A stretch of 64,000 nt of DNA from Terebella lapidaria. Taxonomy: Eukaryota > Annelida > Polychaeta > Terebellida > Terebellidae. The notes below the pieces were generated by a model that was not told the DNA's origin, did no database searches, and saw only the letters and a program-made list of their open reading frames with translations. The stretch's first letter is position 1; every line of letters starts with the position of its first letter. A program made the translations under genes and the position numbers. Below are positions 32,444-54,168 of the stretch, piece after piece. The stretch covers positions 25,269,001-25,333,000 of the forward strand of contig OX424563.1 of NCBI GenBank assembly GCA_949152475.1, in the 5' to 3' direction.

Positions 32444-35400
32444 ATGGAAAGCTCATGTGGTGTTGAAATACGTGAAAATCTGCCGAATAAAGTAAGATAA
32501 TTGCACATTATTATGTCAGTTTACTCATCATTACACCGACAGTAAATAATTTAAATAAATAGGGTCAATGTCAAAGGGTATAATAATTCAACAATGGTAG
32601 GAGCGTGCTTTGTGAGCGATAATACAAGATTTTAGATGTCCGTCAAGGCATCATCAGTTCACAGTTGCGCAATCTCGTATTCTTGGATGAACCATTCTAG
32701 ATTTAACAAAAATGAAAACTGAGCAGTTGCCTTTCCATAAACAACATGTTATATTTGCAATAAACCTATCCCCAATTGCGACAGGGCAGAGGATTGTTCG
32801 CCACGAAGGACTTCAAAGAAGGCGATGTTCTTTTCGAAGAGCGTCCGCTGGTTTGCGCCCAGTTTCTCTGGAATGCCTCCTACAAGTATGTCGCGTGTGA
32901 CCACTGCCTGCGCAGTCTTGAGACGGCTCAGGAATCCAGCCGTCGACTTACTAACAACCCAACCCTTGAGCTGCCTGAACCTGACTGTTGCGAGACGAGA
33001 AAAGACGAGCACGTCTCGTGTCCAGAGTGTCAGGTTGGTGAATCGAAAGTGTCCGTTTCGAATGTACATTGTATGCCGAAAGAATTTACTTGCTGCATGT
33101 AATAAGGTTATACAGACGGTGATATGAGAATGAGGCACAAAATTCACAATGATTCAAGTCAATTACTGAAGACCCATTTGAAGAAAACGCTAAACTTAAT
33201 GGATGCTAAGATTTCGGTGCTCACAGTAGTAGATATCAGCTTAACAACATCAAAGTTCTATCATCCATACCATACGGTTCATACCTTCACTTCTTACCAG
33301 GTGACATACTGCAGCCTTGCATGTCGGGATGCAGCAAATCACCAATACCACCGCGTCTTGTGTATGGGCAGCTCCGTGTCTGATCAGAGTCACCCACTGC
33401 ACCGCCTAGCTGACGCTTGGAAGTAAGTCCCGCACAGGATGTGAACTCATTCGTTTGTCGTCACGAGCTTCGTTTTAGCAGTGTCATTGAGTAGAATTCA
33501 ATATAATTCGAAGGGAATTTAGGAGTGAAAATTGACAACTGAAACCCTTGTATTTTTTTGTTAACCAATTCTTTTGTCTGACTTGGAACTAGGATATCTT
33601 CCGCAGTGTATGGGCATAAATATTCTTGATTAAATGCATGTCGAATGTCCAATCTTGTTGTATCGGTATTTGTTGTTAAGACAGATTCACTACCCTCCAG
33701 AGACTTGCAGCATCATGCTTCTCGCACGGATGGTCGCCACAGTTAAACAGGTACTTGTGTCACTTTCCTCAGCCACGAAAAGGAATTTTCGTATCTTATG
33801 CTATCATGTAGCATTCCCGTTTTAATATAAATGGTAGCTGAGTATTTTCCTTGCAACTACTAGCATTTGTGTAATATACAAAGCAGTTTATGAATGATCA
33901 TAAATGAAGAGTTCATAGATATTTTTCCACTCATTTATTCGCGTTGGTCAAATTGTTAGGTTACCGGACCTTTGGTCCGATAACCTATTGCCGTGGCGTT
34001 GCGTCCGTCGTCGTCGTCCGGCGTCCGGCGTCCGTCAACATTCATATCTTTAAAGCTTACGATCGAATCTTCTTGAAATTTTGCACAAAAATGCTTAAAA
34101 ATATTTCGAGAGGGAGGTATTTTTTAGTTTTTTAAATTTTCGAATTATTTTCAAAATGGCGGCCATTTTTGACGAAAAACAGTTAATTTTGGACTTTGAC
34201 GGTCGTTTTCTCAAAAACTGTCTGATCAGATTTGAGATTTTTGCTTCAAAAGATTCTCCTTATGTACCTCTGTGATGTGTATAAGTTTAGTTGCCCTTGA
34301 ATCGCCGGTCTGCGTATGGCGGCCATTTTGAATTTTCGACGGGTCGGCGAAAAAAAAAAATTTCGGCCCAAATCGCATTACTATCCATTTTGGGCCATTT
34401 CTAGGCAAAAAAAATTTTTTCACCCTTTGAAAAAAATTTTGGACTTAGAAAATTTTCGGCACTTTTTTCCTTCATAATGGGAGCTGCCAGGACTGTACTC
34501 CTAGAACGCCTGAAGATAGAGCTTAGAAATTGGCACTTTCAAATGGAAAGTCATATGTGGCAACTTGTGTGGTGACCTTGAATTTGACCTTGGAAGACCT
34601 TGAAAGCTCAAAACAGCCATTTTTGTGTCGAAAAATGCCCAAATTTGCACCTTGTCTGTCTTATCTCGAAAACTGTCAGATCAGTTTTGAGATTTTTGTT
34701 TCAAAAGATTCCCCTTATGTACCTTTATGATGTGTATAAGTTTTGTTGCCCTTGAATCGCCGATCTCCGTGTGGCGGCCATTTTGAATTTTTGACGAGTC
34801 GGCGAAAAAAAATTTTTTTCGCCCCAAATCGCATTACTATCCCCTTTGAAAAAAATTTTTGGCACTTTTTTCCATCATAATGGGAGCTGTCAGAACTGTT
34901 CTCATAGAACACTTGAAGATACAGCTTAGAAATTGGTACTTTCAAATGGGAAGACATATATGGCGATTTGTGTGGTGATCTTGAATTTGACCTTCGATGA
35001 CCTTGAAAGGTCGGAACAGCCATTTTTGGGTCAAAAAATGCCCAGATTTGCCTCTATAGATGAAATGCTTGCAGATAGAACTCATGTTTGCATTATGAAC
35101 ATATAGCAAGACATATATGGCACAACTAATGATGACCTTGATCTTGACGTCAGATGACCTTGAGTGCCAAATGTCTGACTCGTAATGTGTAAATTGACCT
35201 GAGCGGCCTAAACGATTCCACCCAGATATATCTTTGTATTATGAACATATAGACATGATAGAATATCAAATGCCGCACACATACATGTAATGGTGACATC
35301 GAAGTTAACACGGATGACCTTGATTGGTAAATCTCAAGGTCATTTGTTCACACTGCGAATTTTGATTGGTAAATCTCAAGGTCTGTTACCTGCCAATGCT

Positions 35401-37625
35401 GCCATGGCCAAACCAAAATTGTCCGGTAACCTGTCTTAGCCTTTGGGCTAATTGTATTTCAGGCTGCAGACAAGGATGGTGCAGTTCACGCATTCAGCAG
35501 GTTTTGTAACATGGCAGTAAACGACGAGGAAGCGATATCTCACAAACTTCTGGGCGACAAATTCCAGGTACATAACAGACATAACATTTTCCCTGGTCAA
35601 ATTTTTGTTAAAGTTTAGTCACTGATACATATTGGTGAACCTAAAGCATCGAAATTGTCAGTTTGACAACATTGAACTTTTCGAATAATTTGTGGGGAGA
35701 GTTTGTGGGTATATATTTGGGTTGAAATTCTAGACAAATTCTGCGGAAATGTGATGTAGTATGCCTCACTGCATGTTTCATTCTTATTACGCAGGATCAA
35801 CTGGAGCTTTTCCGGTCAATGTTCGCCGAATATCTTTTTGACGAACATTTACAGCATGTAAGTTCTAACCAGGGTGAAGGTTCACACTAACGTCACAAAG
35901 ACCTGAAGACAGGGCTACAAAAAGTTTCACTGAAAACTTGGATATTTTACCTAGGGTAGCGTCCATTGGTTTGAGCATTTTGACCATTTTGGTCGCTTTT
36001 CATTTACCTTAACGGGTAGATGACAGAAACAGAAAAGCAACCAAAAACAATTTAGTAATGAGATGTTTTAGTTAAGAAGAAGCCCGACTGTAGATCCTTT
36101 TCAATCTTCTTTCGACAGTGGTTCACTCCAGAAGGTTTTCGTTCACTTTTTGCTCTCATTGGACGAAATGGACAAGGAATTGCATCCAGGTTAGTTTTGG
36201 AAAAGTAGAATTTAATATATTTTACTATGATTAATGCATGCCAAAAAGAACATTTGTGTTACCTATCAAAGTGGGATGTCAAAATATGATAAAATTGAGT
36301 AAATATTACTGTTGTGTCTTTCAGCTCAATATCACGATGGGTTCATAACACAGAAAAATTGGGTGAAAGTGATCGAAAAAAGCAACTGGATAGTTTCATA
36401 GAACAATTGTATGAGGATTTGGATAGAGGTGTGTGACTTGTATAAATTCTGAGAGTGAATAACTAATTTAAATTAATCGTTGCAATTCTATTCAGGTATT
36501 TGAACCGACAGTTGAATAAAATTATCATTGAGAATTCTGAGATAGATGAAAACTGATATGACATTAATTTTACGACATACACATTTTTTTGTGGTTAAGT
36601 ATCTGGACCTTTCTTGGATTGTGAAGGATCCGGGCTATACACATTACAGAGCATGAGTAAGCATGTTTGTGTTCGTGTCATATTATTCTATATAAATATA
36701 TCCAGTATGAATAAATACCAAACAAATAAAAAAAATGCAAAAATTGAAATGACAAATATGGGATGCATGTATTCCTGCTAAATAAAAATTTATTTTCAAA
36801 AGATCATCTGATTAGTGACCAACTGTGTTTTGTTGTGGTACTTGTATAAATATTATGTTTGCTAGGCAACCACAGCTGTACTCCGAATGCTGAAGTAACT
36901 TTTCCTCACAACAACTCGACTCTCGTCATGAAAGCCCTCCAAGACATTAGCGCGGGGCAGGTGGGTGGAGAGAAATTCTCAGTAATTCTTGAAGTAAGAA
37001 GTAATTTTCCAGGTTTGATGAACTCGATAGGAAAAAGAATCAGCTTTATGATTGAGTTCTGCCTCACAGACAACTAAAAAAAAAAGAAAAAGTGAATTAC
37101 AAACAAAAAAAATATTGTTTTGGTGAGAAAAAATAGTTATCATTCTTTGACATACCAGTTGTTTAGTTACTTGGAACCAGATTCGTGACCAGAACTGATT
37201 TTCTGTTACTTTTCGTTGCAGGAGATATTCATCAGTTACTTGGATGACTGCAGTCTTTCTCGGAGTCGCCATTCTCGACAAAAAGAACTCAGGTATTGTA
37301 CCAAAAAACATCGGGTCGGATCTGAAGTGGGAATATCTATTCTTAGTTTTGAAGTATTTGTGATTAATTCGAAAAACATTTATACATGTGATATTGTATG
37401 CAGTTTGAGTCCAGTTTGTTATTCACCAATATGAATTCTAAATTGTGATTGAAATAAAAAACATAGTATATTTTCGAATCATCACGATTTTATGCGTTTT
37501 ATTCTCACAGAGAAAACTACCTGTTCAACTGCTCCTGTTCAAAGTGTTTATCCCAGGCAGAGGATCCTGACGTTACCTCCGAGGAGGAAGAGTCCATGGA
37601 TGAAGAGGACATTTCAGAGGACTAG
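32444..37625 (+). CDS. SMYD5: SMYD5 SET/MYND lysine methyltransferase, 12 exons
   Basis: Complete gene for a 389-aa SET- and MYND-domain protein. Vertebrate SMYD5 is a protein lysine methyltransferase, with histone H3/H4 and ribosomal protein substrates reported. Exons: 32444-32491, 32785-33033, 33301-33422, 33681-33750, 35463-35567, 35795-35857, 36119-36189, 36325-36428, 36600-36656, 36866-36960, 37222-37292, 37511-37625. All borders are AG/GT and the phases sum to 1,170 nt with one terminal stop. The N-SET part reads GRGLFAT then [17 protein letters not shown] zinc ligands are C54, C57, C95, C98, C103, C107, H116 and C120. The SET signature NHSCTPN is at 298-304, the catalytic-site SYLDDC follows at 333-338, and the CSCSKC post-SET cysteines are 359, 361 and 364. 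An acidic tail ends the protein, as in human SMYD5 but shorter (human about 418 aa). Intron 4 carries a Helentron-like insertion. Start chosen by alignment to the family N-terminus. Confidence 0.97.
33957..35451 (+). mobile_element. Helentron-like non-autonomous element, copy i, in SMYD5 intron 4
   Basis: This 1.5-kb element begins AGGTTACCGGAC, part of a 5' hairpin that reads to TCCGATAACCT. It ends with the inverted 12-mer GTCCGGTAACCT followed by a terminal hairpin (TTAGCC-TTTG-GGCTAA, 35436-35451) and T-rich flank. Subterminal inverted repeats plus a 3' hairpin without obvious target duplication are the marks of Helentron/HINE rolling-circle elements. The interior has CGTCCGTCGTCCGG-type sequence near the 5' end and two diverged core units of about 460 bp rich in AAATGGCGGCCATTTT and AAGGTCA-type words. 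It encodes nothing. The 3' hairpin ends 11 bp before SMYD5 exon 5. Confidence 0.7.
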
Positions 37626-39734
37626 TCCATTCTGTAGATTTTATCAGGGGTGTGCTGGCTTTGGTGTATGCAAGTCATTTTAATGTACCCGTAATAGAAG
37701 ATTGAATTATCAAATGTTTCGTACAGTTATCAGCGAATGTTTATCTTTGCTGCATGGAAAACTGATACAGTGTTCTATATTCTTCACAATTTAGGGAGAA
37801 TTATTTTATGCCCGGAGGTTTAGCGGTAACTATGAATTTACAATCATACCTTTGGTCTGAAATTTCTTTGCTAATGCCCAACATCTTCCAATTGTAATTC
37901 ATTAAATTGGTATCATCAAAATGACTGTAACAGGCTTGTCTGTAACAAAATATATTTTAGCTTTTCTGTACATGCAAGTACAGATAAAGTTTGTTGTCGA
38001 TCTTGTTCACTTTTTGTTTGGGGTATAACATTGGTGTTGTGCATATTGTGACTGATTTGTGGTAGTAAAATTACCACAAAACCATCTAGTTGTCGTTCTT
38101 ATTATTATTATTATTATCTGCTGACAAATTTTGAAACTTTCTTGAATTATTTCATATATCTGATTTCTAACAACACTGATGATATTAATGCGGTCTTCAG
38201 CATATTTTGGGCATCATGATCGCATTATTTTGGCGATCATGAACGACTGTCAAATTTCTCTCAAGTACAACTTTTTTAGAAGTACAACTTTTTTAGAAAT
38301 AAAATTCATCAATTTGGCCTTAGAGAGCCAGCCTCTAGACAAAAACTTGCTTGTAATTCGTCACTGATTATGCATACATAATGGTGCTCCATAAACTTGA
38401 TTTAATATGACCATTGTGACAAATGAGTTGAAATAATATCACTTTGGAAGGTCGAACTCATCAAGTGTCTTCGATTTCAACAATAGTTTCAATTGAACCC
38501 TAACATGGTTCAAATGATATTATAGGGTAAGAATTCGCTCTTAAAGTTTACCAGAGAAATGTACATTGTCAGGGCAAAAAATCCCAGAGATGTACTAGTA
38601 TGCTTTCAGTCGAATTGGTCGTTTTGATCTTTCAAGGTCATAAACGGTTGAGGTCTAGGTCAAATTCAAGAGCAACATTGAAATCACCATGGAAGCGACA
38701 ATACGAAAGCTCTATTTTGAAGCATGTTATGAGAACCAATACAGAATAACTACAAGTCACAATGAAAAAAAAATTGACTGTAATTTCCAAAAAAAAAACC
38801 AACAATGAAATAAATGTGAATTTGTTTCTGCTCAGAAAGCATATTAGCTTGATTTCGGATCATATATTGGTCGTTTCTCGACAAAAGGGCCAGTTTGATC
38901 TTTGAAGATCATTTCTGTCCAATCCAAGGTCACCATTGAAATAGTCCTGCATAACTTCTCATTTTCATGCACCAATGTCCATGTTTTCGAGCAAGACTTC
39001 ACGCCATACAGCACCTATTATATCCTATGCTATTACTAAGAAAACGTGGTTTAAAAAGATTTTGTCCAAAATCGGTCGATTTGCTGGGCGTCGCTCAAAA
39101 TACACGTTAACTCGACCCAAAATAATGCGCCATGGGCAGACCGGCGATTCAACGAAACTTGAATGCACTTCATAGGCTACATATGATAATGTGAAATCCA
39201 AAGCATAACATTAATTTGCCTGAACATAGGCCTATTTGAGAAAACGACCGTCAGTGTTCAAAATAAAAGAAAACAGAAATAAGAAGTGAACACTTTAATT
39301 GTAACCTCAAAAGGTGTTGAATTATTGCTAGGTATTTTCTGTCAACATTTCAGAAAGATTGAAACGACGGATGCAGTGCCAGAAGACCAATTAGATGACC
39401 ATTGTCCGGTCATCTCAAATATACCTGATTGAAGATGAACAGGAGAGGGGAATCATCTTTGGGGTATTTCCATCAGCCCGAGCGTGTCCTACCGTGGCGT
39501 TTTAATTACGTAAAATTATACGTCATTACATTAATTAGTCATAAGCCATATCTAATAATGGGATATTTATTGGTAGTCCATATATCGTTTTGAGGCACAT
39601 AATAATTATATAGAGCTCCATAAATTTCTGAAACCAAAGCACATAAAGTGAATTCAGTAGCTACTGTGGTTGTATAGTCTTATTACGGTGTAGAAATTTT
39701 ACTTTTCTTTTTGTGTTTGATCTTTGAATAAATT
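37626..39734. other. SMYD5 3' region and repeat-like spacer
   Basis: The first 0.7 kb is probably SMYD5 3' UTR, with an ATT microsatellite at about 38099-38117. From about 38.43 to 39.18 kb the sequence uses words also found in the Helentron-like elements (TTTCAAGGTCAT, AGGTCAAATTCAAG, GACCGGCGATTCAACGAAACTT). This suggests a decayed relative, but no clear ends are visible. No coding exon is seen. Confidence 0.4.
38298..38303 (+). terminator. Candidate SMYD5 polyadenylation signal
   Basis: AATAAA lies 673 bp after the SMYD5 stop codon, directly after a short tandem repeat of AGTACAACTTTTTTAGA. It is the first canonical signal I noticed downstream of the stop; transcript evidence would be needed to fix the end. 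Confidence 0.35.
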
Positions 39735-40268
39735 ATGCTAATATGGAAATGCTACAAGCACGTGCTCCGACGGTATCCTTTATTGGCGCAAGCGACCAAC
39801 ACGTCCCTCCTATTCGGCACGAGTGACGTCATTGTCCAAACCTGCATCGAGCGCCGCCTAGCCAATGACAGCTATGACCCCTGGCGAACGGTGCGTTATT
39901 TCGGCGTAGGATTCGTTATTTTCGGGCCAAAAATGCACTTTTGGTACGGTGCGCTTGACCGAGCCATTCGCGGACGTCGTCTGCCTTCGGTTCTGAAGAA
40001 AGTGGCTCTGGACCAGGGGCTATTTCTGCCCATATACCTCGCGTCTTTCCTCGGTGTAATGTCTGTTCTGAGACGGGAATCAGCCCACGAATTGAAAGAG
40101 AAGCTGGTCCGGGACTTCCCCAGCCTTCTACTAACCAGTTATAAGATTTGGCCGGCCGTACAAGTGGTCAACTTTACATTTGTGCCTTTGCGACATCGTA
40201 TATTGTTGATGAATTGTGTGTCTCTAGTCTGGAACTGTTACCTAGGCTGGAGTGCTGAAAACTCGTAG
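39735..40268 (+). CDS. Mpv17/PMP22-family membrane protein, intronless
   Basis: A single uninterrupted frame of 177 codons, the same length as typical Mpv17 proteins (about 176 aa). Family landmarks occur in order: WKCYKHVLRRYPLLAQ at the N-terminus, GPKMHFWYGALDR after the second membrane segment, LDQGLFLPIYL, and the C-terminal signature YKIWPAVQVVNFTFVPLRHR followed by WNCYLGW. Four hydrophobic segments are predicted by eye. The family sits in the inner mitochondrial membrane or in peroxisomes; Mpv17 is needed for mitochondrial DNA upkeep, probably as a channel. The VPL and WN-YL residues are closest to Mpv17 itself, while HFWY resembles MPV17L2, so the subfamily is left open. There is no intron although vertebrate relatives are multi-exon, which suggests a retrocopy or intron loss. 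The intact frame argues against a pseudogene. Confidence 0.9.
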   Translation: MLIWKCYKHVLRRYPLLAQATNTSLLFGTSDVIVQTCIERRLANDSYDPWRTVRYFGVGFVIFGPKMHFWYGALDRAIRGRRLPSVLKKVALDQGLFLPIYLASFLGVMSVLRRESAHELKEKLVRDFPSLLLTSYKIWPAVQVVNFTFVPLRHRILLMNCVSLVWNCYLGWSAENS

Positions 40269-42762
40269 AACCATCAAACACATTTGAACATACATCTAAC
40301 ATTTATAATGAAGTATATATATAAATATATATAAACACCCTGTGTTGTTTTTTGTGAGTACATTGGAAGTCTCGTCCGAATGTCATTGCATGCACCTCAC
40401 TGTTCCTCAAATAACCTACATGTGTTATTTCTTTTCAAATTCATATAATAGTCTGTTCTGCTCTGTAAAGGCGCATACTGATGGTTATAAATCATCCAAC
40501 TGCTATTACGTAGATGTAGGGTATCATGTGGGTTTTTCATAAGTGACCTTGAATTCATACTTGCGAGGAACTTGAGTGGTTTACATCAAGATCACATCGC
40601 CTAAAGGAGACAAATTGCCCCAGAGACGACAGAGGTCTGGTATTATGAGCATAGTTAAGCCTATATGTACATGTATATGTGGTCATATATGACGCATCTT
40701 TTGGAGAATTTGAACGTACCCCCAAAATGACGCAATATTGCTCAGATTATTGATTTTTTAAGGAGTCTAAGGGGTAACACCCACTGACCGCACATAACAT
40801 ACGGGGCTGCGTTGAGCTGTGTGGCCCCGATAGCAATAAACTTTTCGGATTTGGTAACCACTGCGTCCCTATTAAAGGACTGACGGATCTGCCTATTATC
40901 CTTAGGAACAAAATGTATATGACAGAGGCGATCATGACTGATATCGGCGCAGTGGGGATTACAGGAATGAACTTCTGCACCCAAAAGGTGAGCTTCATAG
41001 GGGCGAGGTTCATTTCCTCTTCTGGTTGGGTCCTACCCGTTCTTTCCAAGTTCGAGTGACGCATGCTACCATCGTGCAGGATGGACCCACTCTGCATGCA
41101 CATGCCTCTTGATGGTCGAGCTTGTATAGTGCAACCTGTAAGCCGTTTCGCCAGGGATACAAATGCTACAGTTGTACTGCAATACGGGCTAGATGCTGCA
41201 ACAACTAGATGTTACGTTGTCATACATGGTCTCCCTGACGATCCGATGTGTGGCACTACTTGCGCCCACGTGGCCGCTGGGGACGACCCTCTGTCTTTGC
41301 TAGAACATTTGGAATCTCGCATTCCAACTACGGGAAGCTCAAAGATGTAACGCGGAAAGACTCAGTATTCCCTTGCGCACATCAATGACTCATTTGATGC
41401 CCTCGATCTTAGCCATTTTGTGCACTCGATCTAACCTAAGGTATTGGCTAGTCCAAATGAAGGAGCGTGATTAGGGAAATAGCCTTAGTCACCAACAACA
41501 GACTTGACCACTTCAAAGTAATGCTAATCGGGCTCTGCAACACACCTGCGGCATTCCAATGCCTGATTGAAATGGTGTCAAGAGGGTATCTTTGGAAGTG
41601 ACACTTGGTGTTCATCGACGATGTTGTCGTGCATGGCCACTCTTTCGAAGAGACTCTGACCAATTTCCAGATGGTGCTTCACCACATCCAGGAAGCAGGG
41701 CTCAACTGAAGCCGAAGATTTTGTACTTGGGCTTCATTGTGACCGAAACAGACATTCGTTCGCCCCCCGTGAAACTGGATAGCATGCAGAAGTAGCCTCA
41801 GCCATGTAACATAGGCGGCTTGAGGTCCTTCTTGGGCTTCGAGATTTATCAACGCCATTTCATTCAAGGTTTTTGCAGAGATTGCGAGTCCATTAACCAT
41901 CCTCATGAGCCCATTTCTTCTGGGACACTCTGCAGAAGGTAATTTTACAGACGTCTGTATGGCATTGACACTGGCTCCCATGCTCCGTCACCCCCTCCCC
42001 AACTGTGAGTTCTTCTTGGAAACTGACGCGAGTAATTTTGCTCTCGGCGGTGTCCTCATACAGATCGTGGACGGCAAAGAATGTGTGATAGCCTATGCGA
42101 GAGTTGCTCTGAGTCGTTCGCAAATGAATTATTGCACTACCCATTGTGAGTATCTCACAGTTGTGACTATGATCAATCGGTTCCAGCATAACTTGCCAGG
42201 ATGGCACTTCCGGTCTGCAGGATGCGCAGACTGAGGAACAATCCTACTTGGGTGGCTACACTGACACGCAGCTGGCTGCGAAGCAATGGGCAGACGCTGC
42301 CCTGGCGCCGGTCATCGAAGCTCTTGAGGCTGAGGAAAAGCCAGAGAAAGCAATCTCTAGTCTGCAGGTTTGAGCCGGTCTCTGTGCGATAGTTTTTTGT
42401 ATCGGCGTTATGAGCACGCACACCCTAAACCTGTGGTACTGTGGACAGAAGTGCTGCACCAGCTCCACGACTTTCAGTGACGGGTCATCTGGGTATCCAG
42501 AAAACCATCTCCCGGTTGCAAAAATGCTTTTATTGGCCGGATTGCAACTTGGATGTGGTGCATGGTCAGACTTGTAAGAGTTCTGGCTCCGGGCCGCCAC
42601 CCCTTAACCATAGTTAAGGTGCGCACAATATTTGACTGAATGACCTGGGACATACTGAATACCCACTGGGTTTCATGCAGTGTACTTCACCAAGTACACA
42701 GACGCCTTTCTGCTCGGCACCAAACTGCCGACGAGGTGGCCAGTTTCTTGGTGTGTAGGTAG

Positions 42763-43597: not shown

Positions 43598-44487
43598 GTA
43601 AGTAGGTGGTATGCCATGGTGTACTCAAGCAGCCAAGCAGGTTCACTTGGATCAGGGCACTCATTACAAGTGCTCTGTTCCAGGGCCTAGCAGAAATGCT
43701 GGTCAGTACCAAGGTACATATACGTCCAGGTCTAACGAACAGGTTGAACGCTTTAACTGATCTGTCATTAATATGCTGGCAGCCTTCAGAAACGATTGTG
43801 CGAATACTTGGGATGACCACCTCTCATATACGTCTTGATGGCGTACTGGTCGTTGGTCCATGCTTCCACTCAGATGACATCACACATGATGCTGTATGGT
43901 AAGGAGCCTGATTTACCTGTGGAGCTAGTGCAGTAACTGCGATTGCACAACATTCAACGATTTGGCTCCCCTGAATGCACACCATGCTAAGGTCAATTGC
44001 GGGGCAATGATACCGATGGGTCAGGTACGAGATTTGACCCTATTCAACTGTGGGTGCATTCCACCTTGGATATCTTCTCGATACGTTTCCTATTGTGGGC
44101 TTCCCATTGGGTGGCGCATCCCTCAGCGCCTCTTGAATGACTGCTGGTCAGTGCTGGATGGAGCCTGGTACCGTGATGATTGGAGGTTCAAGGTTCGAGC
44201 TTATTTATTGGCAACCATGGACCGAACGCCACAGGAATACGCCTCAAAGGCTGACGCCATCAGGAACTTTGTGCTGCTGTAGCAGGTAGAGTGGTTTGGC
44301 TCAAGACCACCACAAGCGCGACCACAGTCGCGAATATGAAGCTTGGATTGCTACTCCCTCGACAAGTGGATCTTTGGTCAGGTCCTCCGCCTTGACAAAC
44401 ACTGTGACGATCCTCTCGACAGAACTGTGTACAGACTTCGTCGAGTGGCAAGGCATCGCTGCTCTGCAGATTCAGACACAGGACACT

Positions 44488-44799
44488 GTGGAGATTTCCA
44501 CTCTGCATAGCTCTGCCACTGCCTGTGTCTACGTGACTCTCCGCAAGTCTGTGCGTCAGGTGGTGGGGCCATTGGTTAGATGGTCTGGAGCCCGTTCTGA
44601 ATGATGCTGCGTTTTTCAACTTACTGGTACCACGAACCCTAACGTGGAGATTTCCGCTCTGCATGGCTCTGCCACTAACCAGGTCTACGTGACTTTCCGC
44701 GAGTCTGTGGGTCAGGTGGTGGGCCATTGATTAGATGGTCTGGAGCCCTTCTGAATGATGCGGCGTTTTTCAAATACTGGTACCACTAGCCCTAATGGG
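44488..44799 (+). repeat. 156-bp tandem duplication
   Basis: The segment beginning GTGGAGATTTCC at 44488 is repeated at 44644, an offset of 156 bp. Shared words include CTCTGCATAGCTCTGCCACT-like sequence, GTCAGGTGGTGGG, TTAGATGGTCTGGAGCCC and CTGAATGATGC. The two units differ by perhaps 10 percent, so the duplication is moderately old. It lies just downstream of the Ty3 fossil and encodes nothing recognisable. Confidence 0.75.
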
Positions 44800-46405
44800 A
44801 ATCCGGGCGAGCCGAATTTGGGTCATTCCCGCATGAGAAATGAAATTGTCCCTGGGTCACCCTCAGCATGGGCAATTCACCCGTGCTGCACTGTGTCTCG
44901 TGGCAGAGATGGACTGCTCTCTGCAGTGGCTGAGTTGAGCCTGCGGTGAGACATCTAGGGTGGCATGCGAACTTGCATATCACCAGGGGCTGATGGAGGG
45001 TACTCAGCGCAGCCTAGAGGGCCACCTTACTCTCGCCACCGAATGCAAGCATGATCAGGTGGAGCAGAATGATAATGGCCCCTACAGGCGTTGGGCTACC
45101 CTCGTGGGTCCGGCACTTGGGTGAGGAGGGAGAATCCAGTCCATCTTCCACGGATTTATCTGCAGACACAATTTAGCTCTCGTCAGAGAGTGTCGTTTTA
45201 CAAAAATTTTCAATTTAAAGGTAATTGGTTTCCAAACATTCAACATATTGTCCATTCCAGCAGGTGACCTCCCCATGTCATCAGCCTTACCGGAACAAAG
45301 TTTAGCTTGTTTACTAGGATTCATTCGAAACTCCAGAGCAAACAGTCTAGCCTGTTAAGTCTGAGGGTATATCCCCATTCTTCCGAAACATATCCTTTTG
45401 GTCTGACCTTTTGCGTTCTAATTTTGGGTGCCGCTCACCTTTATTCCTTCTGGTCCACAATGCGATACTTTTGTCGTGTTTGACAGTTTAGGGCCAATTT
45501 GTTGGGAGGTTGGGAACCAATATTGTAAGGTGGGGGTAATGTCGCGAATTTGCTGCCAGCAGCTTGGTTTTGGGGGAGATTTATCTTTTAGGGGGAGATT
45601 TATCGAGCAGTGAATGCCACGGTGAGCACAATGACATGCGTTCCTGTCCCACTCCTGAGTAGGTGAGCCCATGGCTCACGGGGAACTTTCTCAATAAGGG
45701 GACTCAGAGGAGGCTGTGTGTTGGCACGATGCTTGCAATGGTGCCCACATTCTTCCCTGTAAAGCTATGACCATCAATCAATTTATCTGGGTATAAATCC
45801 CTTGGCGGTTCATCAACGAGGCCGACCAGCAACACGCCCACGTGCTCGGGTACTGGAAGTCCCTTATACGGCATTCGGTTCCGGGTGCTCCGGGCCAACA
45901 ATAACCATGTATGATTCTGCTCATTCGATGGACTAACTTCTGTGTCAGGCGCTGGTGATGACCGTGCCACACCAGAGGGTGTACGACTGTATGTGCCATG
46001 GAAAGCCGGCGCAAAAGGTTACATTTTCATGTATTTATCCAGAGCGGAGGTTTTTTAACTGCAGGATGTTCAGTATTTGCTGCTTTTTATGGTCTTTTCT
46101 GATGAAATGCGTGGATTTGGATTCATTTCTCTATTTTTGAGTTGCACTTAAATTACATATTTTACGTTTTTGTTCAGCCATCAAAACATATTCGTTTAAT
46201 CGTCATCGGGACAACAGCTGCTTCAGGAACATCATGAATGGATTCAGCGTGTGCAGAAACCCTTTAGACCACCCCCGACAGAAAAGGGCCTCAAGAAGAA
46301 GCCTCGGGAGTCAGACAATTTGGCCCCAAATATTTTTCAATAATCTGACCTTCAGCAAAAAAAAGAAGAAAAAGTCAGCACAAAAATCACACGGGAGTTG
46401 TTTTT
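44800..46405. other. Unassigned repeat-like DNA next to the Ty3 fossil
   Basis: GC content is higher than the surrounding spacer and short frames on both strands are interrupted, as expected for decayed retroelement sequence. I could not assign any domain with confidence. A short direct repeat, GGGGGAGATTTATC, occurs at about 45573 and 45591. It may be the remainder of the same retroelement or a second one. Confidence 0.35.
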
Positions 46406-46722
46406 AGGTTACTGTACCTATGGTCCGTCCTTCGGCGTCGTCGTCCGTCCACATTTTTATCTTTAAATAAAGTTTACGGGTGAATCTTTCTGAAATCTTG
46501 CACAAAAATGCCTGAAAATATTTTGAAAAGAGGGTATTTTTTTTTCGCATTTTTTCAAGGTGGCAGCCATTTTCGACGATAAACGGCCAATTTCTGAGTG
46601 GCGGCCATTTTCTCAAAAACTGTTCAGACAGTTTTGAGACTTTTATTTCAAAAGATTGACCTTATTTTCAAGGCCACGGGACAATATATTTGTCCGGTAA
46701 CCTATCCTAACTCTTGGGCTAA
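46406..46722 (+). mobile_element. Helentron-like element, copy ii (short)
   Basis: A 317-bp version of the family. It starts AGGTTACTGTACC, continues into CGTCGTCCGTCC and the AAATTTTGCACAAAAATGC-type segment shared with the other copies, and ends TTGTCCGGTAACC, then CCTAACTCTTGGGCTAA and a run of T. Most of the core is missing, so it is an internally deleted relative. Both ends match copy i in the same orientation, which helps fix the family boundaries. Confidence 0.65.
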
Positions 46723-47250
46723 TTTTTTTTTGACATGTCATACCACACTATCAAGGCGTAGACATTTTCACCAGATAGTATCACTCCAAATATCAAAATG
46801 TCTACATAACATTCTATAATATTAGGCATGCCAGTATAAGTAGGCCCACAATTTGACCAAAATGTCAATTACGTCTCGCTGAAAGATACCCCCTGAAAGA
46901 CACGATATCATGCAGAAATCCATAACATGGGTCCTTTTTGGGATTTCTAATGATACCGATGGAATAATCGTGACCACGTAGGCCCCTAGATTCCGAAATT
47001 TGAAGAAAATTAATAAATAATATAGAAACATACAGAGTGTTAGGAAAAGGTATAAAATTTGTGACGACTATTCTATCATATAAAGCCATTTTAAATATTG
47101 AATGTCTTCATAATATTAAAATTCGGCATCACGGTACTGGCTGATAATATTTTTCTTTCTATCGGAGAACAGATCAAACACAGGTAGTAACTCTGAAAAC
47201 TTCGGAGAAGGAAGCGAGGAAATCTCCTTACGGCCAGACTGGTTATCTAA
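46723..47250. other. AT-rich spacer
   Basis: No coding or repeat feature is recognised. The segment is AT-rich and its frames are short. Confidence 0.3.
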
Positions 47251-47463
47251 TTAAAGTACTGGCAGACCCATTGCCCCCGCTGTGTTGATGAGCAGCAGGT
47301 CGGGGCGGCTTCAGTGGTGAAATATTCGGTGAAACCACTGCGTTGTTGCAACATCCAGCGCCGATTTGGCGAACTGAACGATACCTTGTATCTTTTGTAT
47401 GTGGAGAACTTTCATCAGCATGTGCAGCATTCGGGAGTTCAAGTGTTTACGGAAGATAGCTGA
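47251..47463 (+). other. Coding-like frame of 70 codons without start codon
   Basis: A stop-free frame from 47251 to the stop at 47461-47463 encodes a Cys/His-bearing peptide (HCPRCVDEQQ near its start, then PLRCCNIQRRFGELNDTLYLLY and ENFHQHVQHSG). It stands out because GC content and codon use are higher and more regular than in the AT-rich flanks. It has no ATG at its start; an AG at about 47265 could act as a splice acceptor. It may be a last exon of an unrecognised gene or a transposon-derived remnant. I do not recognise the family. Confidence 0.3.
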
Positions 47464-48674
47464 GCGTGTGCAGATGGAAATCAATAGTAGGCCCTTGTAT
47501 GTGGATATATTATAAACATTTCGTTTGAGTGGCGATTCGTGAAGGTTGGTCTCAATTTTTTAATTCGTTGAAATTTACCAAGCAATTAATAAGTCCAAAA
47601 CATGTGGCGCAGACAGGGCGTTTTGCACAGAATATTTAATCCACATGAATATTTAAAAAAACATAATTCTCAGGACCGAAATTGTATTTAAATACAAATA
47701 TTTTTTCCATGGTACCGCATTGATTACTAGTATGCATCTAACTGGCTGACTTAGAAAACTGATTTAGAGTGATAAACATGAGTAGCACAATTACAGTACT
47801 AGAATTGAATAATGTTTCGGTATACATCATAGCAATTATCATAGTATAAGAGATAAAACTGTTCAATAAAGTTGACGATATACTATAGAACAGTTTTCTG
47901 TGGACTGTGGATATGATATGTATGTAATCAATAAATCCTGGGGGGGGGGGGGGGGGAGGGGGGCTAGATATATATTTTGACATCTGGATTAATATGCCCA
48001 ATGGATTCTGGGAAAGAAATTTCCGATGTGATGAGGCAAAAAAGCTAGTTGACCGGATTTTCCATACCACACACAAGACGGTTGAATGTTTGTTGATTAT
48101 TTTGACTGATGTTGTCCTCAGAGGAAATTATTTAGATGAATATATGTTTTATACATGCATTAATTCAAATTAAATATAGAAAAAAAACATGCAAAAGCAT
48201 TCAAATCGAATTCAATATGTCACGGAAACGCGGAAAGATTCAGCATATACTTTGGGGCTACATGTTCGTATTCTTGGTGTCAGGCTCATGTAATTGTGTA
48301 CATTAAGTTATCGTCAGACCACCAAATATTATTTTTCCAAACATTTCAAAGGATTTTGAAAATATAATAGCATTTCAAACAATAAAAGTGTATAGTAGAG
48401 ACCCGGGAATATTTTAGTCATTTTTAATGCATTTTTTGGCACCATCATTTATTCAGAATACAACATGACCATAGAGCTACAAGGTGAAAAAAGGTTAAAC
48501 AGTATACAACACCAAGGTATGAATATCAATGCAATATTCATTAATTTTTCATGAATCAAACAGTTGCGATTCTAAGCAGAGTACACCATTAGCAGCATTA
48601 GCAGAGTACACCATAGCAGAGTACACGGTAAACTATGGATGAAATGTACAGTACATTCATAATTTATTGAAAAA
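47464..48674. other. AT-rich spacer with poly-G run
   Basis: Non-coding AT-rich DNA. It includes a poly-G run at 47940-47963 broken by one A, and a small tandem array of TTAGCAGAGTACACC-like words at about 48577-48627. No exon is recognised. Confidence 0.4.
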
Positions 48675-49785
48675 TTAGTCTAAGGGCTTAAATAGGTCAT
48701 CGGACATTAAGCATTGCAGGTGACATATGACCTTCAGATTTACCACCCAAGGTCATCTTTGTGAATTTCAATGTCACCATTAGGTGTGCAGCATATGATT
48801 TTATATATGTTCATAATACAAACATATATATTAACAAGTACTGTATTTTGTCTGTAGAGGTCAATTTATGCATTTCAGGTCGGGCGAGATTTGTCTAAGG
48901 TCAAGATCGTCTAAGGTCAAGTTGAAGGCCACCAAAAGATGTGCATATGATTTTTTTATAATACAATCCTAAACTCTAGGTGCAAGCGTTTAAAAGGCTC
49001 AGTAGCCAATTTACACATTCTACGTTATTCGTGGTCAAGCTCAAGGTCATCATTACTTTTCCCTTATACGACTTCCTATATGTCCATAATGCAAACATAA
49101 ACTCTATTTATAAGCATTTTGCCTGTAGAACCAAATTTGGGTATTTTTTGTCCCAGAAATGGCTGTTTTAACCTTTCAGGGTCAAATTCAAGGTCACCAC
49201 ACAAATCGACATATATGACTTCCTATTTGAAAGTGCCAATATCTAAGCTCTATCTTCAGGTGTTCGATGAGTACAGTGGTTGCAGCTCCCATAATGAAGG
49301 GAAAAAAGTACCGAAACATTTTTACAAACGATGAAAAAAATTGTTTTGCCTAGAAATGGCCCAAAATGGATAGTAATGCGATTTGGGGCGAATAAATGTG
49401 TTTTCGCCGACCCATCAAAAATTCAAAATTGCCGCCACGCGGAGACCGGAGATTCAAGGGCAACAAAACTTTTACACATCCCTAAGGTACATAAGAGGAA
49501 TCGTTTAAAACAAAGATGTCAAAACTGATCAGATAGTTTTTAAGAAAATGGCCGCCAAAGTTCAAAATGGAGCGTTTTTCGACGAAAACGGCCGCCATTT
49601 TGAGTAAAATTAAAAAATCCAAAAACTAAATAATATCTCCTTCTTGAAATATTTCAAGGTATCTTTTCCCAAACTTTCAGAAAGAATTGACCTACACTTT
49701 AAAATAAAAATGTGGACGGACGGCTAGACGGACGACGGACGAAACGCGGCAGCAGTAGGTTATCGGACCATAGGTGTGGTAACCT
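48675..49785 (-). mobile_element. Helentron-like element, copy iii
   Basis: A 1.1-kb diverged copy in reverse orientation. The decayed 3' hairpin is at 48675-48691 (TTAGTCTAAGGGCTTAA), followed by AGGTCATCGGACA. The 5' end is at 49785 (GGTTATCGGACCATAGGTGTGGTAACCT), preceded by a short GACGGACG stretch. The interior matches copies i and iv: AAGGTCACCACACAAATCG, GGCCCAAAATGGATAGTAATG and GCCGCCA words in one core unit. It is more diverged than copy iv, so it is older. Confidence 0.65.
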
Positions 49786-50279
49786 AGAAACTGAACTCAT
49801 GTAAAAGTCACACTACAGGAGGCCTACTGTAAATACTAGATGTTCGCGTTCCACATTGTGTTCACAATAACTACCAGTATTATATTTTTCATAGGTTCGA
49901 CCACAACTCTCTTTATTAGAATGTGAACGAGATAGGCCTAGGGTAGATAAATAGAATTCACCCGATCTTCACTTCGCGCTACGGAATGATCGATGTGTTG
50001 GTTGTTGGTCATTCGCCAGGTGGCGGTACCGCGTTGCGTCAAAATATTTGTTTTTGTCAAATTTTGCATGAAGTTTTGACATATTTCACAAATTCGCCAA
50101 CATGGATGTTCCTGTTTGAATAGGCAGTGAAAGATTCGCATCGGCAAGATAGCTACGATTCATGTAGATGGTGCCTAGCATTGATTTCGTTTCATTTCCT
50201 TGCGCGTGATCGTTGATGTCAGGTTGATGTTAGATCTAGCCGGCCCTACGTCTACGACGTCCCCGCCCCGGGCCTAGCC
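49786..50279. other. Short spacer, nothing recognised
   Basis: Mixed-composition DNA between two Helentron-like copies. No frame with a known motif is visible. GC rises to the right, leading into the inverted repeat at 50280. Confidence 0.35.
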
Positions 50280-50380
50280 CTGAATACAAGGCACAACGAT
50301 CGGTCCCCCCCCCCCCCTCCTCCAACAAGGACGGTCGAGGGGGGGGGGACCCCGGACCGATCGTTGTGCCTTGTATTCAG
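50280..50380. repeat. Perfect 27-bp inverted repeat with poly-C/poly-G loop
   Basis: Arms at 50280-50306 and 50354-50380 are exact reverse complements over 27 bp, starting CTGAATACAAGGC. The loop contains a run of about 14 C and a run of about 10 G that could pair further, leaving only about 20 unpaired bases. Partial complementarity (GGGCCTAGC / CTACCCCGGGCCC) extends outside the arms. It ends 25 bp before the 3' end of Helentron-like copy iv. Perfect arms imply recent formation or a very young fold-back element. Confidence 0.8.
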
Positions 50381-50714
50381 AGCTACCCCGGGCCCAGCAA
50401 AAAAATTAGCCCAAAGGCTAAGATAGGTTACCGGACAATTTTGGTTTGGCCATGGCAGCATTGGCAGGTAACAGACCTTGAGATTTACCAATCAAGGTTC
50501 GCAGTGTAAACATATGACCTTGGGATTTACCAATCAAGGTCATCCGTATGAACTTCGATGTAACCATTACATGTATGTGTGCGGCATTTGATATTCTATA
50601 TGTTGGGTGGAATCGTTTAGGCCGCTCAGGTCAATTTACACATTCCAAGTCAGACATTTGGCACTCAAGGTCATCTGACGTCAAGTTCAAGGTCATCATT
50701 AGTTGTGCCATATA

Positions 50715-51598
50715 CAGGGAATAATTTGTTCGGTATCGCATCGCAATTTGCGATGCAATTTCGACGGATTGCGATACAATCTTGTTTTTCTGTCGCAACG
50801 AAGGCGATGCAAAACTGGGTCCCGATCTTTTCTGTGATTTGTCATGTGCACGGGCTGCTAGCCTGCTACATGCTAATACAAGCGAGAGGGGTGGTGATAT
50901 TGAGCAATTGCCTCTAGAGGGGTATAGCTTAATAGCAATTGTGTCCTAGAGGGGTCTCCCAATTGAACAATCATGCCCTAGAGGGGGGTATCATTGCACT
51001 CAGTCATGCTGCACGTGACAGTTTTATCATTCATCAGCGGTCTGTTTATTCTATCGCGTGCGGTCTCCTTGGTAACGATGGAAATGCTTGTGAACTGGGC
51101 TTCGAAAACGTCATGTTTGGTTTGGAATCAGAGATCCATTACCAGATTAGACATATCACCGATCTCAGGCCTATGGTATTATGCTATCTATGGTTTTTAT
51201 ACCAGTTGGAATAACTTTTTCTATATCTACGTTCATTGTTCACCAGGCATCATGACTGTTGCTGTCCGCACGATAGAAAGGTGGACACATGAATTGGATC
51301 CCGATCGTCACCCTAATGTTCAATGTAATTTTGCATGTAATGTAATTTTGCATACAAGCTGCAAAAGACTTAACTAAATGATTATAATGTTCTCATGTTA
51401 CTAGGCTGAGTATTGATCGATGTTTGTCAAATTGGTGTTTGTCAAATCCATGTAATAAATGCTTTCGTCAAATTGTCTGATCTGGTGTCGGTTTTCTGTT
51501 GTTTCTAACTGCTATTCAATTTTGACCAACTGCTATTCAAATACGAAATTGTGTAGCAGTTCGTGCTATTCACTTTTCCAAAAACAAATTATTCCCTG
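50715..51598. mobile_element. Non-autonomous hAT element inside Helentron-like copy iv
   Basis: 884 bp with perfect 16-bp terminal inverted repeats (CAGGGAATAATTTGTT and its complement) and a perfect 8-bp target duplication, GCCATATA, at 50707-50714 and 51599-51606. CAGGG termini and 8-bp duplications define the hAT superfamily. The empty site is preserved in Helentron-like copy i, where the same element sequence runs through GCCATATATG without interruption. No transposase motifs are seen; the longest frame (about 50994-51377) is unrecognised. Confidence 0.9.
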
Positions 51599-54066
51599 GC
51601 CATATATGTCTTCCTATATGTTCATAATGCAAACAGGAGCACTATCTGCAAGCATTTCATCTACAAAGGCAAATCTGGGCATTTTTTGACCCCAAAATGG
51701 CTGTTTTGACCTTTCAAGGTCATCCAAGGTCAAATTCAAGGTCACCACACAAGTCGCCATATATGACTTCCGATTTGAAAGTGCCAATTTCTAAGCTCTA
51801 TCTTCAAGCGTTCTATGAGTACAGTCCTGACAGCTCCCATTATGAAGGAAAAAAGTGCCGAAAATTTTCTAAGTCCAAAATTTTTTTCAAAGGGTGAAAA
51901 AATTTTTTTGCCTAGAAATGGCCCAAAATGGATAGTAATGTTATTTGGGGCGAAAAACTTTTTTTTCGCCGACTCGTCAAAAATTCAAAATGGCCGCCAC
52001 ACTGAGATCGGCGATTCAAGGGCAACAAAACTTATACACGTCGCAGAGGTATATAAGAGGAATCTTTTTAAGCAAAAATCTCAAAACTGATCAGACAGTT
52101 TTTGAGAAAATACAGACCAGGTGCAAATTTGAGCGTTTTTCGACCCAAAAATGGCTGTTTTGACCTTTCAAGGTCATCCAAGGTCAAATTCAAGGTCACC
52201 ACACAAGTCGCCATATATGACTTCCCATTTGAAAGTGCCAATTTCTAAGCTCTATCTTCAAGCGTTCTATGAGTACAGTCCGGACAGCTCCCATTATGAA
52301 GGGAAAAAGTGCCGAAAATTTTCTAAGTCCAAAATTTTTTTCAAAGGGAGAAAATTTTTTTTTGCTCTAGAAATGGCCCAAAATGGATAGTAATGCGATC
52401 TGGGGCGAAAAAAATTTTTTTCGCCGACCCGCCAAAAATTCAAAATGGCCGCCACATGAAAACCGGCAGATTTAGGGCAGCCAAACTTATACATATCACA
52501 GAGGTATATGAGGGGAATCTTTTGAAACCAAAAACTCAAAACTGATCAGACAGTTTTTGAGAAAATGGCCGTCAAAGTCCAAAATTGAGCGTTTTTCGAC
52601 AAAAACGGCCGCCATTTTGAAAAAAATGCGAAAATCAAAAAACAAAAAAATACCTCCTTCTCAAAATATTTTTAGGCATTTTTGTGCAAAATTTCAGAAA
52701 GATTCGATCGTTAACTTTAAAGATAAAAATATTAACGCCGGACGGACGGACGTTTGTCAAATCCATGTAATAAATGCTTTCGTCAAATTGTCTGATCTGG
52801 TGTCGGTTTTCTGTTGTTTCTAACTGCTATTCAATTTTGACCAACTGCTATTCAAATACGAAATTGTGTAGCAGTTCGTGCTATTCACTTTTCCAAAAAC
52901 AAATTATTCCCTGGCCATATATGTCTTCCTATATGTTCATAATGCAAACAGGAGCACTATCTGCAAGCATTTCATCTACAAAGGCAAATCTGGGCATTTT
53001 TTGACCCCAAAATGGCTGTTTTGACCTTTCAAGGTCATCCAAGGTCAAATTCAAGGTCACCACACAAGTCGCCATATATGACTTCCGATTTGAAAGTGCC
53101 AATTTCTAAGCTCTATCTTCAAGCGTTCTATGAGTACAGTCCTGACAGCTCCCATTATGAAGGAAAAAAGTGCCGAAAATTTTCTAAGTCCAAAATTTTT
53201 TTCAAAGGGTGAAAAAATTTTTTTGCCTAGAAATGGCCCAAAATGGATAGTAATGTTATTTGGGGCGAAAAACTTTTTTTTCGCCGACTCGTCAAAAATT
53301 CAAAATGGCCGCCACACTGAGATCGGCGATTCAAGGGCAACAAAACTTATACACGTCGCAGAGGTATATAAGAGGAATCTTTTTAAGCAAAAATCTCAAA
53401 ACTGATCAGACAGTTTTTGAGAAAATACAGACCAGGTGCAAATTTGAGCGTTTTTCGACCCAAAAATGGCTGTTTTGACCTTTCAAGGTCATCCAAGGTC
53501 AAATTCAAGGTCACCACACAAGTCGCCATATATGACTTCCCATTTGAAAGTGCCAATTTCTAAGCTCTATCTTCAAGCGTTCTATGAGTACAGTCCGGAC
53601 AGCTCCCATTATGAAGGGAAAAAGTGCCGAAAATTTTCTAAGTCCAAAATTTTTTTCAAAGGGAGAAAATTTTTTTTTGCTCTAGAAATGGCCCAAAATG
53701 GATAGTAATGCGATCTGGGGCGAAAAAAATTTTTTTCGCCGACCCGCCAAAAATTCAAAATGGCCGCCACATGAAAACCGGCAGATTTAGGGCAGCCAAA
53801 CTTATACATATCACAGAGGTATATGAGGGGAATCTTTTGAAACCAAAAACTCAAAACTGATCAGACAGTTTTTGAGAAAATGGCCGTCAAAGTCCAAAAT
53901 TGAGCGTTTTTCGACAAAAACGGCCGCCATTTTGAAAAAAATGCGAAAATCAAAAAACAAAAAAATACCTCCTTCTCAAAATATTTTTAGGCATTTTTGT
54001 GCAAAATTTCAGAAAGATTCGATCGTTAACTTTAAAGATAAAAATGTTAACGCCGGACGGACGGAC
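51437..54066. repeat. Near-identical 1,315-bp tandem duplication
   Basis: Unit 1 is 51437-52751 and unit 2 is 52752-54066, both starting GTTTGTCAAATCCATG. All segments I compared are the same at an offset of 1,315 bp. I noticed only one substitution, near the end (AATATTAAC versus AATGTTAAC). The unit spans the right end of the hAT element, two core repeats and the start of the GGAC tract, so it arose after both insertions. It could be a very young duplication or an assembly error at a repeat. Confidence 0.92.
52752..52913. mobile_element. Truncated hAT right end carried in duplication unit 2
   Basis: The first 162 bp of duplication unit 2 repeat the last 162 bp of the hAT element, including the terminal inverted repeat and the following GCCATATA. 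It has no left end of its own. This is a by-product of the tandem duplication and not a second insertion. Confidence 0.88.
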
Positions 54067-54116
54067 GGACGGACGGACGGACGGCTAGACGGACGGACGG
54101 ACGGACGACGGACGCA
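54054..54116 (+). repeat. (GGAC)n microsatellite
   Basis: About fifteen GGAC units, interrupted by CTAGAC and CGAC variants, close to the 5' end of Helentron-like copy iv. Shorter versions sit at the same relative place in copies i, ii and iii, so the tract belongs to the element. An ACGG-type tetranucleotide tract is also typical of some marine-invertebrate Helitron-like families. Confidence 0.85.
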
Positions 54117-54168
54117 ACGCCATGCCAATAGGTTATCGGACCAAAGGTCCGGTAACCTAAAATGAGTT

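What the first reader, a model, noticed from the sequence alone, without database searches (positions are those of the whole stretch)
33957..54158. A Helentron-like family with double-hairpin ends, four copies in 20 kb
Copies at 33957-35451, 46406-46722, 48675-49785 and 50406-54158 share AGGTTACCGGAC subterminal inverted repeats, a 5' palindrome (GGTTACCGGACC-TTT-GGTCCGATAACC), a 3' TTAGCC/GGCTAA hairpin, a GGAC tract and about 454-bp core repeats. A strong hairpin at the 5' end as well as the 3' end is not standard for Helitrons. The family may be an undescribed variant, with unit number changing between copies (0 to 4).
Basis: partly seen in the sequence, partly recalled or inferred. Interest (0 to 1): 0.75.

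Follow-up and report, generated by a model that had tools for sequence, protein, structure and literature searches.

The report
Abundant DINE-1-like non-autonomous Helentron family
Four copies of a very common non-coding jumping element sit in this stretch of a genome, and its hairpins at both ends, which looked unusual, are the standard layout of a known kind of rolling-circle element first described in fruit flies.

Summary
Four copies (33958-35451 +, 46406-46722 +, 48675-49785 -, 50406-54158 -) share a 5' imperfect palindrome, 12-bp subterminal inverted repeats, a CGTC/CGGA microsatellite, tandem core repeats and a 3' hairpin. In the window's own genome (762 Mb) the 5' palindrome pattern has 11,208 exact sites and the 3' end pattern 11,470; reversed-pattern controls gave 0. 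Seven usable empty sites show insertion into T-runs with a net gain of 4 or 5 T and no other duplication. The 5' palindrome was not found beside the Rep-helicase genes sampled.

The claim that a 5' hairpin is non-standard fails. DINE-1 and oyster Cg_HINE, which are non-autonomous Helentrons (HINEs), have the same layout: 5' subTIR plus adjacent complementary repeat, GTCY microsatellite, central tandem repeats, 3' subTIR and stem-loop. Unit number is 1 or 2 in 44 of 46 copies counted; the '4' in copy 4 comes from a hAT-like insertion and a 1315-bp tandem duplication. Verdict: a new, very abundant member of a known kind; low interest.

The parts
33958..35451 (+). HINE copy 1 (1494 bp, two core units), from AGG to CTAA; TT on each side
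33958..33986 (+). 5' palindrome of copy 1: subTIR arm (13 nt), TTT loop, complementary IR arm with one C.A mismatch
35421..35432 (+). 3' subTIR of copy 1 (GTCCGGTAACCT)
35436..35451 (+). 3' hairpin of copy 1 (TTAGCC TTTG GGCTAA), ends at the 3' boundary
46406..46722 (+). HINE copy 2, short decayed copy (317 bp) without a complete core unit
48675..49785 (-). HINE copy 3 (1111 bp, about one core unit), diverged
49757..49785 (-). 5' palindrome of copy 3, two substitutions in the subTIR arm
50406..54158 (-). HINE copy 4 (3753 bp): a two-unit copy enlarged by an insertion and a tandem duplication
54130..54158 (-). 5' palindrome of copy 4 (exact)
54054..54114 (-). 4-bp microsatellite (CGGA/CGTC) after the 5' end of copy 4
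50425..50436 (-). 3' subTIR of copy 4
50406..50421 (-). 3' hairpin of copy 4
50715..51598 (.). hAT-like insertion in copy 4: 14-bp TIRs CAGGGAATAATTTG, 8-bp duplication GCCATATA at 50707-50714 and 51599-51606
   Evidence: read directly; the superfamily name is recalled from TIR and TSD only, not tested
51437..54067 (.). 1315-bp tandem duplication (51437-52751 and 52752 to about 54067) inside copy 4, taking in the right end of the hAT-like insert
   Evidence: 99.9% over 1316 bp

Best explanation
This is a non-autonomous Helentron (HINE, DINE-1-like) family. The element carries no protein. A Rep-helicase(-endonuclease) supplied in trans recognises the subterminal repeats, peels off and copies one strand, stops at the 3' hairpin and joins the strand into a T-run elsewhere, without excision. 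The 5' palindrome is the 5' subTIR plus its neighbouring complementary repeat, the standard 5' module of this class, presumably a recognition or initiation structure. Core tandem repeats are satellite-like cargo that varies between copies. Shown here: anatomy, copy number, T-run insertion with no non-T duplication, the same ends with different cores, many long-ORF Rep-helicase genes in the same genome. Inferred: mobilisation in trans, the roles of the two hairpins, rolling-circle transfer.
For: 12-bp subTIRs, adjacent complementary arm, CGTC/CGGA microsatellite, tandem core, 3' subTIR and hairpin. 11,208 exact 5' palindromes and 11,470 3' ends genome-wide, reversed controls 0. 10,024 5' ends are preceded by TTT, at least 89% of 11,208. 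In 45 distinct full copies the 5' flank has at least two T in 42 of 45 and the 3' flank in 45 of 45. Empty sites: net +4 T at L006, L008, L017, L044 and net +5 T at L009, L010, L055, no other duplication. No ORF of 120 aa or more lies in the four copies except one inside the hAT-like insert. Two core types (about 454 bp and 134 bp) lie behind the same ends. 150 scored Helitron_like_N matches, all over the cut-off; 17 of the first 20 rows have open frames of 2000 codons or more. One of these genes read in full matches Helitron_like_N, PIF1, OTU and Exo_endo_phos, the Helentron set.
Against: No autonomous element with these ends was found. The 5' palindrome was absent from ten stretches upstream of Rep-helicase genes, six further upstream, twenty downstream and the further flanks. 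One intact 3' end of the family lay upstream of one gene, with 134-bp-type HINE repeats before it, and decayed 3' ends lay inside one Helentron type. These windows cover about 20 of 150 listed genes and for the type followed furthest the termini were not reached, so absence is not shown. Whether the trans-acting protein is of the endonuclease type or not (Helitron2) is therefore untested. At pure T-run sites a TTTT duplication cannot be told from element-borne T. Of 20 copies that gave any empty-site match, 13 were not used: six whose flank is another end of the family (L005, L013, L022, L024, L027, L030) and seven unclear (L003, L016, L039, L048, L049, L053, L054).
Confidence: 0.9

Rival explanations
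1. Non-autonomous Helitron2-type element: palindromes at both ends and asymmetric terminal repeats, moved by a Rep-helicase without the endonuclease.
For: [quoted passage not shown]
Against: The one Rep-helicase read in full has a C-terminal endonuclease match, and 16 of 20 downstream windows, several of them close relatives of one another, carry an SDHD-type motif just before the stop (meaning of the motif recalled). The GTCY microsatellite and central repeats match DINE-1/HINE. None of this ties a given protein to these ends.
Confidence: 0.07
2. MITE of a cut-and-paste superfamily that duplicates a short T-run.
For: Inverted repeats, high copy number, no coding; a TTTT duplication would mimic the net +4 T seen at four empty sites.
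Against: The gain is +5 at three other sites (L009, L010, L055). Copy 1 has only TT on each side. 10 of 45 copies have fewer than four T on the 5' side. The ends are asymmetric: the 3' inverted repeat lies internal to a hairpin that ends the element.
Confidence: 0.03
3. Canonical Helitron (5' TC, 3' CTRR, A-T insertion; criteria as given in PMC4067079).
For: The 3' end reads CTAA followed by T.
Against: No 5' TC; CTAA is the 3' arm of the hairpin itself, not about 11 bp beyond it; insertion is in T-runs, not between A and T.
Confidence: 0.01

Closest known systems
DINE-1 / INE-1 of Drosophila (PMC2374699, passages read)
   Different: Different letters from the D. melanogaster, D. simulans and D. 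sechellia subTIRs shown in the passage; here the 5' arms match at 12 of 13 positions; the number found here is above the 355-502 listed for those three species
Cg_HINE elements of Pacific oyster (PMC7492417, passages and section 7 read)
   Same: 11-12 bp subTIR with a 7-12 bp complementary repeat 1-12 bp away, GTCY/GTCC microsatellite, satellite-like array, 3' subTIR plus palindrome, related flanks with different arrays
Helentrons and HINEs of mite, Culex and Drosophila (PMC4067079; abstract, section 3 and parts 1-2 of 3 of section 4 read)
   Same: Palindromic or IR-paired subTIRs, 3' palindrome, T-rich target, strings of 2-5 T at the borders that belong to the element, no duplication at empty sites
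   Different: There autonomous partners with the same ends were found; here not

Membership tests
HINE (non-autonomous Helentron) | subTIRs of 11-15 bp near both ends | tested here: met
   AGGTTACCGGAC / GTCCGGTAACCT in copies 1 and 4; in the loci exact in 62 of 69 5' ends and 66 of 67 3' ends matched with few errors allowed
HINE (non-autonomous Helentron) | 5' inverted repeat or palindrome at the 5' subTIR | tested here: met
   11,208 exact sites genome-wide, control 0
HINE (non-autonomous Helentron) | palindrome at the 3' end after the 3' subTIR | tested here: met
   11,470 exact sites, control 0
HINE (non-autonomous Helentron) | insertion in T-T / T-rich sites without target duplication | tested here: met
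   T-run sites alone cannot separate element-borne T from a T duplication
HINE (non-autonomous Helentron) | microsatellite plus central tandem repeats, no coding | tested here: met
HINE (non-autonomous Helentron) | autonomous Helentron partner with the same ends | tested here: inconclusive
   Helentron-type genes exist; 5' palindrome not found in the sampled flanks
Canonical Helitron | 5' TC, 3' CTRR about 11 bp after a hairpin, A-T insertion | tested here: not met
Cut-and-paste MITE | terminal inverted repeats and fixed-length target duplication | tested here: not met
   3' inverted repeat is internal; T gain 4 at four sites and 5 at three
Helitron2 (non-autonomous) | Rep-helicase without endonuclease in an element with the same ends | tested here: inconclusive
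   no element with the same ends and a gene was found

The most novel reading that the evidence does not exclude
The 5' hairpin pairs unequally on the two strands: its one mismatch is C.A on the element's top strand and a pairable G.T on the bottom strand. It is kept in 67 of 69 5' ends in the loci, and at least 10,024 of 11,208 sites genome-wide have that form. If this is selected and not just inherited, the bottom-strand hairpin is the working form at the 5' end, which would point to a step of the Helentron cycle on the complementary strand (for example cleavage or a second-strand event) that I do not know from current models.
Probability: 0.06. Interest if true: 0.5.

Novelty: new member of a known kind. 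Interest (0 to 1): 0.2.

Why it matters
It shows that the supposed oddity is the standard architecture of non-autonomous Helentrons. It adds a very abundant family (11,208 exact 5' palindromes in 762 Mb, about one per 68 kb) with nested copies that supply ready-made empty sites. The family is a good dataset for defining Helentron target choice and border T handling, but it changes no concept.

Tried and rejected
Autonomous partner: I fetched flanks of Rep-helicase genes and looked for the family's ends. The 5' palindrome was not among them. The family's 3' ends seen there were one intact 3' end upstream of a gene (L094) and decayed ones inside one Helentron type; I read them as HINEs inserted near or in Helentrons. 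A match of L070 to HINE loci fell outside the HINE copies in those loci, and L070 and L071 gave no match to the window copies. The reading of unit number as a natural range of 0 to 4 was rejected. A search of papers for the subTIR letters listed three papers on unrelated subjects (listing only). Searches were seen as listings only, apart from the three papers named.

The 5' stem shows no useful covariation because it hardly varies. The loci were chosen by similarity to the ends, so conservation of the ends in them is biased upwards.
Full report
What was checked. Read on the element's strand, a copy begins T-AGGTTACCGGACC-TTT-GGTCCGATAACCT-ATTG, runs through a CGTC-type microsatellite and one or two core units of about 454 bp, and ends GTCCGGTAACCT-nnnT-TAGCC-TTTG-GGCTAA followed by T. 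The left arm of the 5' palindrome is the subterminal inverted repeat; the right arm is an additional complementary repeat. Copies 1 and 4 have intact ends, copy 3 is diverged, copy 2 is a 317-bp remnant.

Genome-wide family. The pattern AGGTTAYCGGACCWWWGGTCCGRTAACCT, which is its own reverse complement, has 11,208 exact sites, and the reversed control has 0. The 3' end pattern has 5834 + 5636 exact sites, control 0. The two patterns differ in degeneracy, so the similar numbers only show that there is no large excess of one end. 10,024 (5111 + 4913) 5' ends are preceded by TTT, at least 89% of 11,208. The density is about one per 68 kb, so the window, with two sites that fit the pattern exactly, is a mild cluster.

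Full copies. From the 60 loci and the window I extracted 45 distinct full copies (after dropping repeated flanks, stretches with another 5' end between the two ends, and copies at a locus end). The loci were the best-scoring matches, so they lean towards young copies. Lengths are 1026-1603 bp plus window copy 4 (3753 bp). In one search, which kept one more copy (46), the first unit anchor occurs once in 11 of 11 copies of 1026-1268 bp, twice in 33 of 34 copies of 1444-1603 bp, four times in copy 4. A second anchor agrees except in L011 (two) and L058 (one). The odd one, L056 (1501 bp), has neither anchor and carries a 134-bp repeat array. L020 and L048 also hold 134-bp arrays next to ends of the family. 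The same ends thus carry different satellite-like cores, as reported for oyster HINEs.

Target sites. In the 45 copies the T-run on the 5' side is at least 2 in 42 of 45, and on the 3' side in 45 of 45. Insertions into relatives of the same family or into other repeats give empty sites. L006: 4 + 5 T filled, 5 T empty (38 of 38 relatives). L017: 5 + 4 against 5 (38 of 38). L008: 5 + 6 against a run of 7 (58 of 62, some with one other letter in the run). L044: 5 + 5 against 6, with a neighbouring G differing. L009: 5 + 5 against 5 (few, imperfect relatives); L010: 4 + 6 against 5 (one relative, in the same locus); L055: 2 + 7 against 4 (11 of 14). 20 of the 45 copies gave some match; 13 were not used. 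Six of these have another end of the family as flank, which makes the match trivial (L005, L013, L022, L024, L027, L030). Seven are unclear because the relatives match poorly or differ in the run (L003, L016, L039, L048, L049, L053, L054). In the seven used there is no duplication of any non-T base. The simplest reading is that the element brings 4 to 5 T of its own, as stated for Culex Helentrons (strings of 2 to 5 T at the borders that are part of the element and vary in number; PMC4067079). A TTTT duplication is not excluded at the pure T-run sites.

Copy 4. It contains an 884-bp insertion with 14-bp terminal repeats CAGGGAATAATTTG and an 8-bp duplication GCCATATA (read; hAT-like by recalled criteria), and a 1315-bp tandem duplication, 99.9% identical over 1316 bp, that includes the right end of that insertion, so the duplication came later. 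Without both the copy would be 1546 bp with two units.

Is the 5' hairpin new? No. PMC2374699 (2008; [quoted passage not shown] PMC4067079 describes palindromic subTIRs or an IR at the 5' subTIR in mite, mosquito and fly Helentrons and HINEs. PMC7492417 describes the same in oyster. The element here shows each of these features, so it is a family of a known kind; whether it already has a name was not settled.

Partner. Helitron_like_N matches number 150, the scored part of 234 candidates, all over the cut-off; 17 of the first 20 rows have open frames of 2000 codons or more. One gene read in full (L061, 2355 aa) matches Helitron_like_N, PIF1, OTU and Exo_endo_phos. Of 20 downstream windows, some of them close relatives, 16 show an SDHD-type motif in the last residues before the stop. 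Looking for this family's ends near sampled genes I did not find the 5' palindrome; one intact 3' end lay upstream of a gene (L094), preceded by 134-bp-type repeats. For the L061 type, 11 other copies are 95-98% alike over the 3 kb upstream stretch L092, from its base 1 or 20 to its end. The stretches compared between the C8 and C14 copies are 95-98% alike from about 33,499,618 to about 33,516,490 on C8 (the coding part was not compared base by base), and C8 and C6 copies are 98.9% alike back to about 33,496,937. No terminus was reached. Inside lie decayed HINE 3' ends at the same place, one in three copies, another in two, so these units carry old HINEs. The partner question stays open.

Hairpin pairing. 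The 5' palindrome has one nearly constant mismatch: 67 of 69 5' ends in the loci keep C on the left and A on the right. With DNA energies the bottom strand folds fully (-11.0 kcal/mol, one G.T pair), the top strand with one open mismatch (-9.6). This may simply be inherited. The 3' stem occurs as AGCC/GGGC and, less often, as GGCC/GGCC: 3 of 67 3' ends in the loci are of the second kind. The pattern allowed mixed forms; among the first places listed I saw one (C1:3144156-3144186). That is in line with maintained pairing, but two inherited subfamilies would look the same, and the GGCC form with a T at the third base folds with only four pairs.

Mechanism. The most likely working is rolling-circle, copy-and-paste mobilisation by a Helentron protein acting on the subTIR modules, with the 3' hairpin as stop signal and T-runs as targets. 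The anatomy, the numbers and the empty sites are shown; the enzyme, the strand and the roles of the hairpins are inferred from the named papers and general knowledge of Helitrons.

Noticed in passing
window 50715-51598: hAT-like non-autonomous insertion with 14-bp TIRs and 8-bp duplication inside HINE copy 4; its right end is duplicated with the 1315-bp tandem duplication.
   Followed up: partly
window 50274-50386: Fold-back repeat of about 113 bp with long G/C-rich arms close to the 3' end of copy 4; relatives elsewhere (106 first-look candidates, 40 scored) match over most of its length on both strands at 73-86%, so a dispersed fold-back family.
   Followed up: partly
L056:2103-3180, L020:171-1055, L048:1-818: 134-bp tandem repeat arrays next to or between the same HINE ends: a second core type in the same family.
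   Followed up: partly
L098, L099, L100, L103, L104 (upstream of Helentron genes on C8, C14, C6): Helentron-type units, compared stretches 95-99% alike over about 17 kb or more, carry decayed HINE 3' ends at fixed positions; termini not reached, so very large Helentrons or duplicated blocks.
   Followed up: partly
L005, L012, L024, L027, L030, L056, L058: Copies abut head to tail with only a T-run between them (3' end, T-run, next 5' end), from nested or repeated insertion into border T-runs or from tandem copying.
   Followed up: no
window 39235-39267: 33-bp stretch 88% like copy 1, possibly an old relic.
   Followed up: no
window 39735-40268: 177-aa ORF that looks like an Mpv17/PXMP2-family protein (recalled, not tested).
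   Followed up: no
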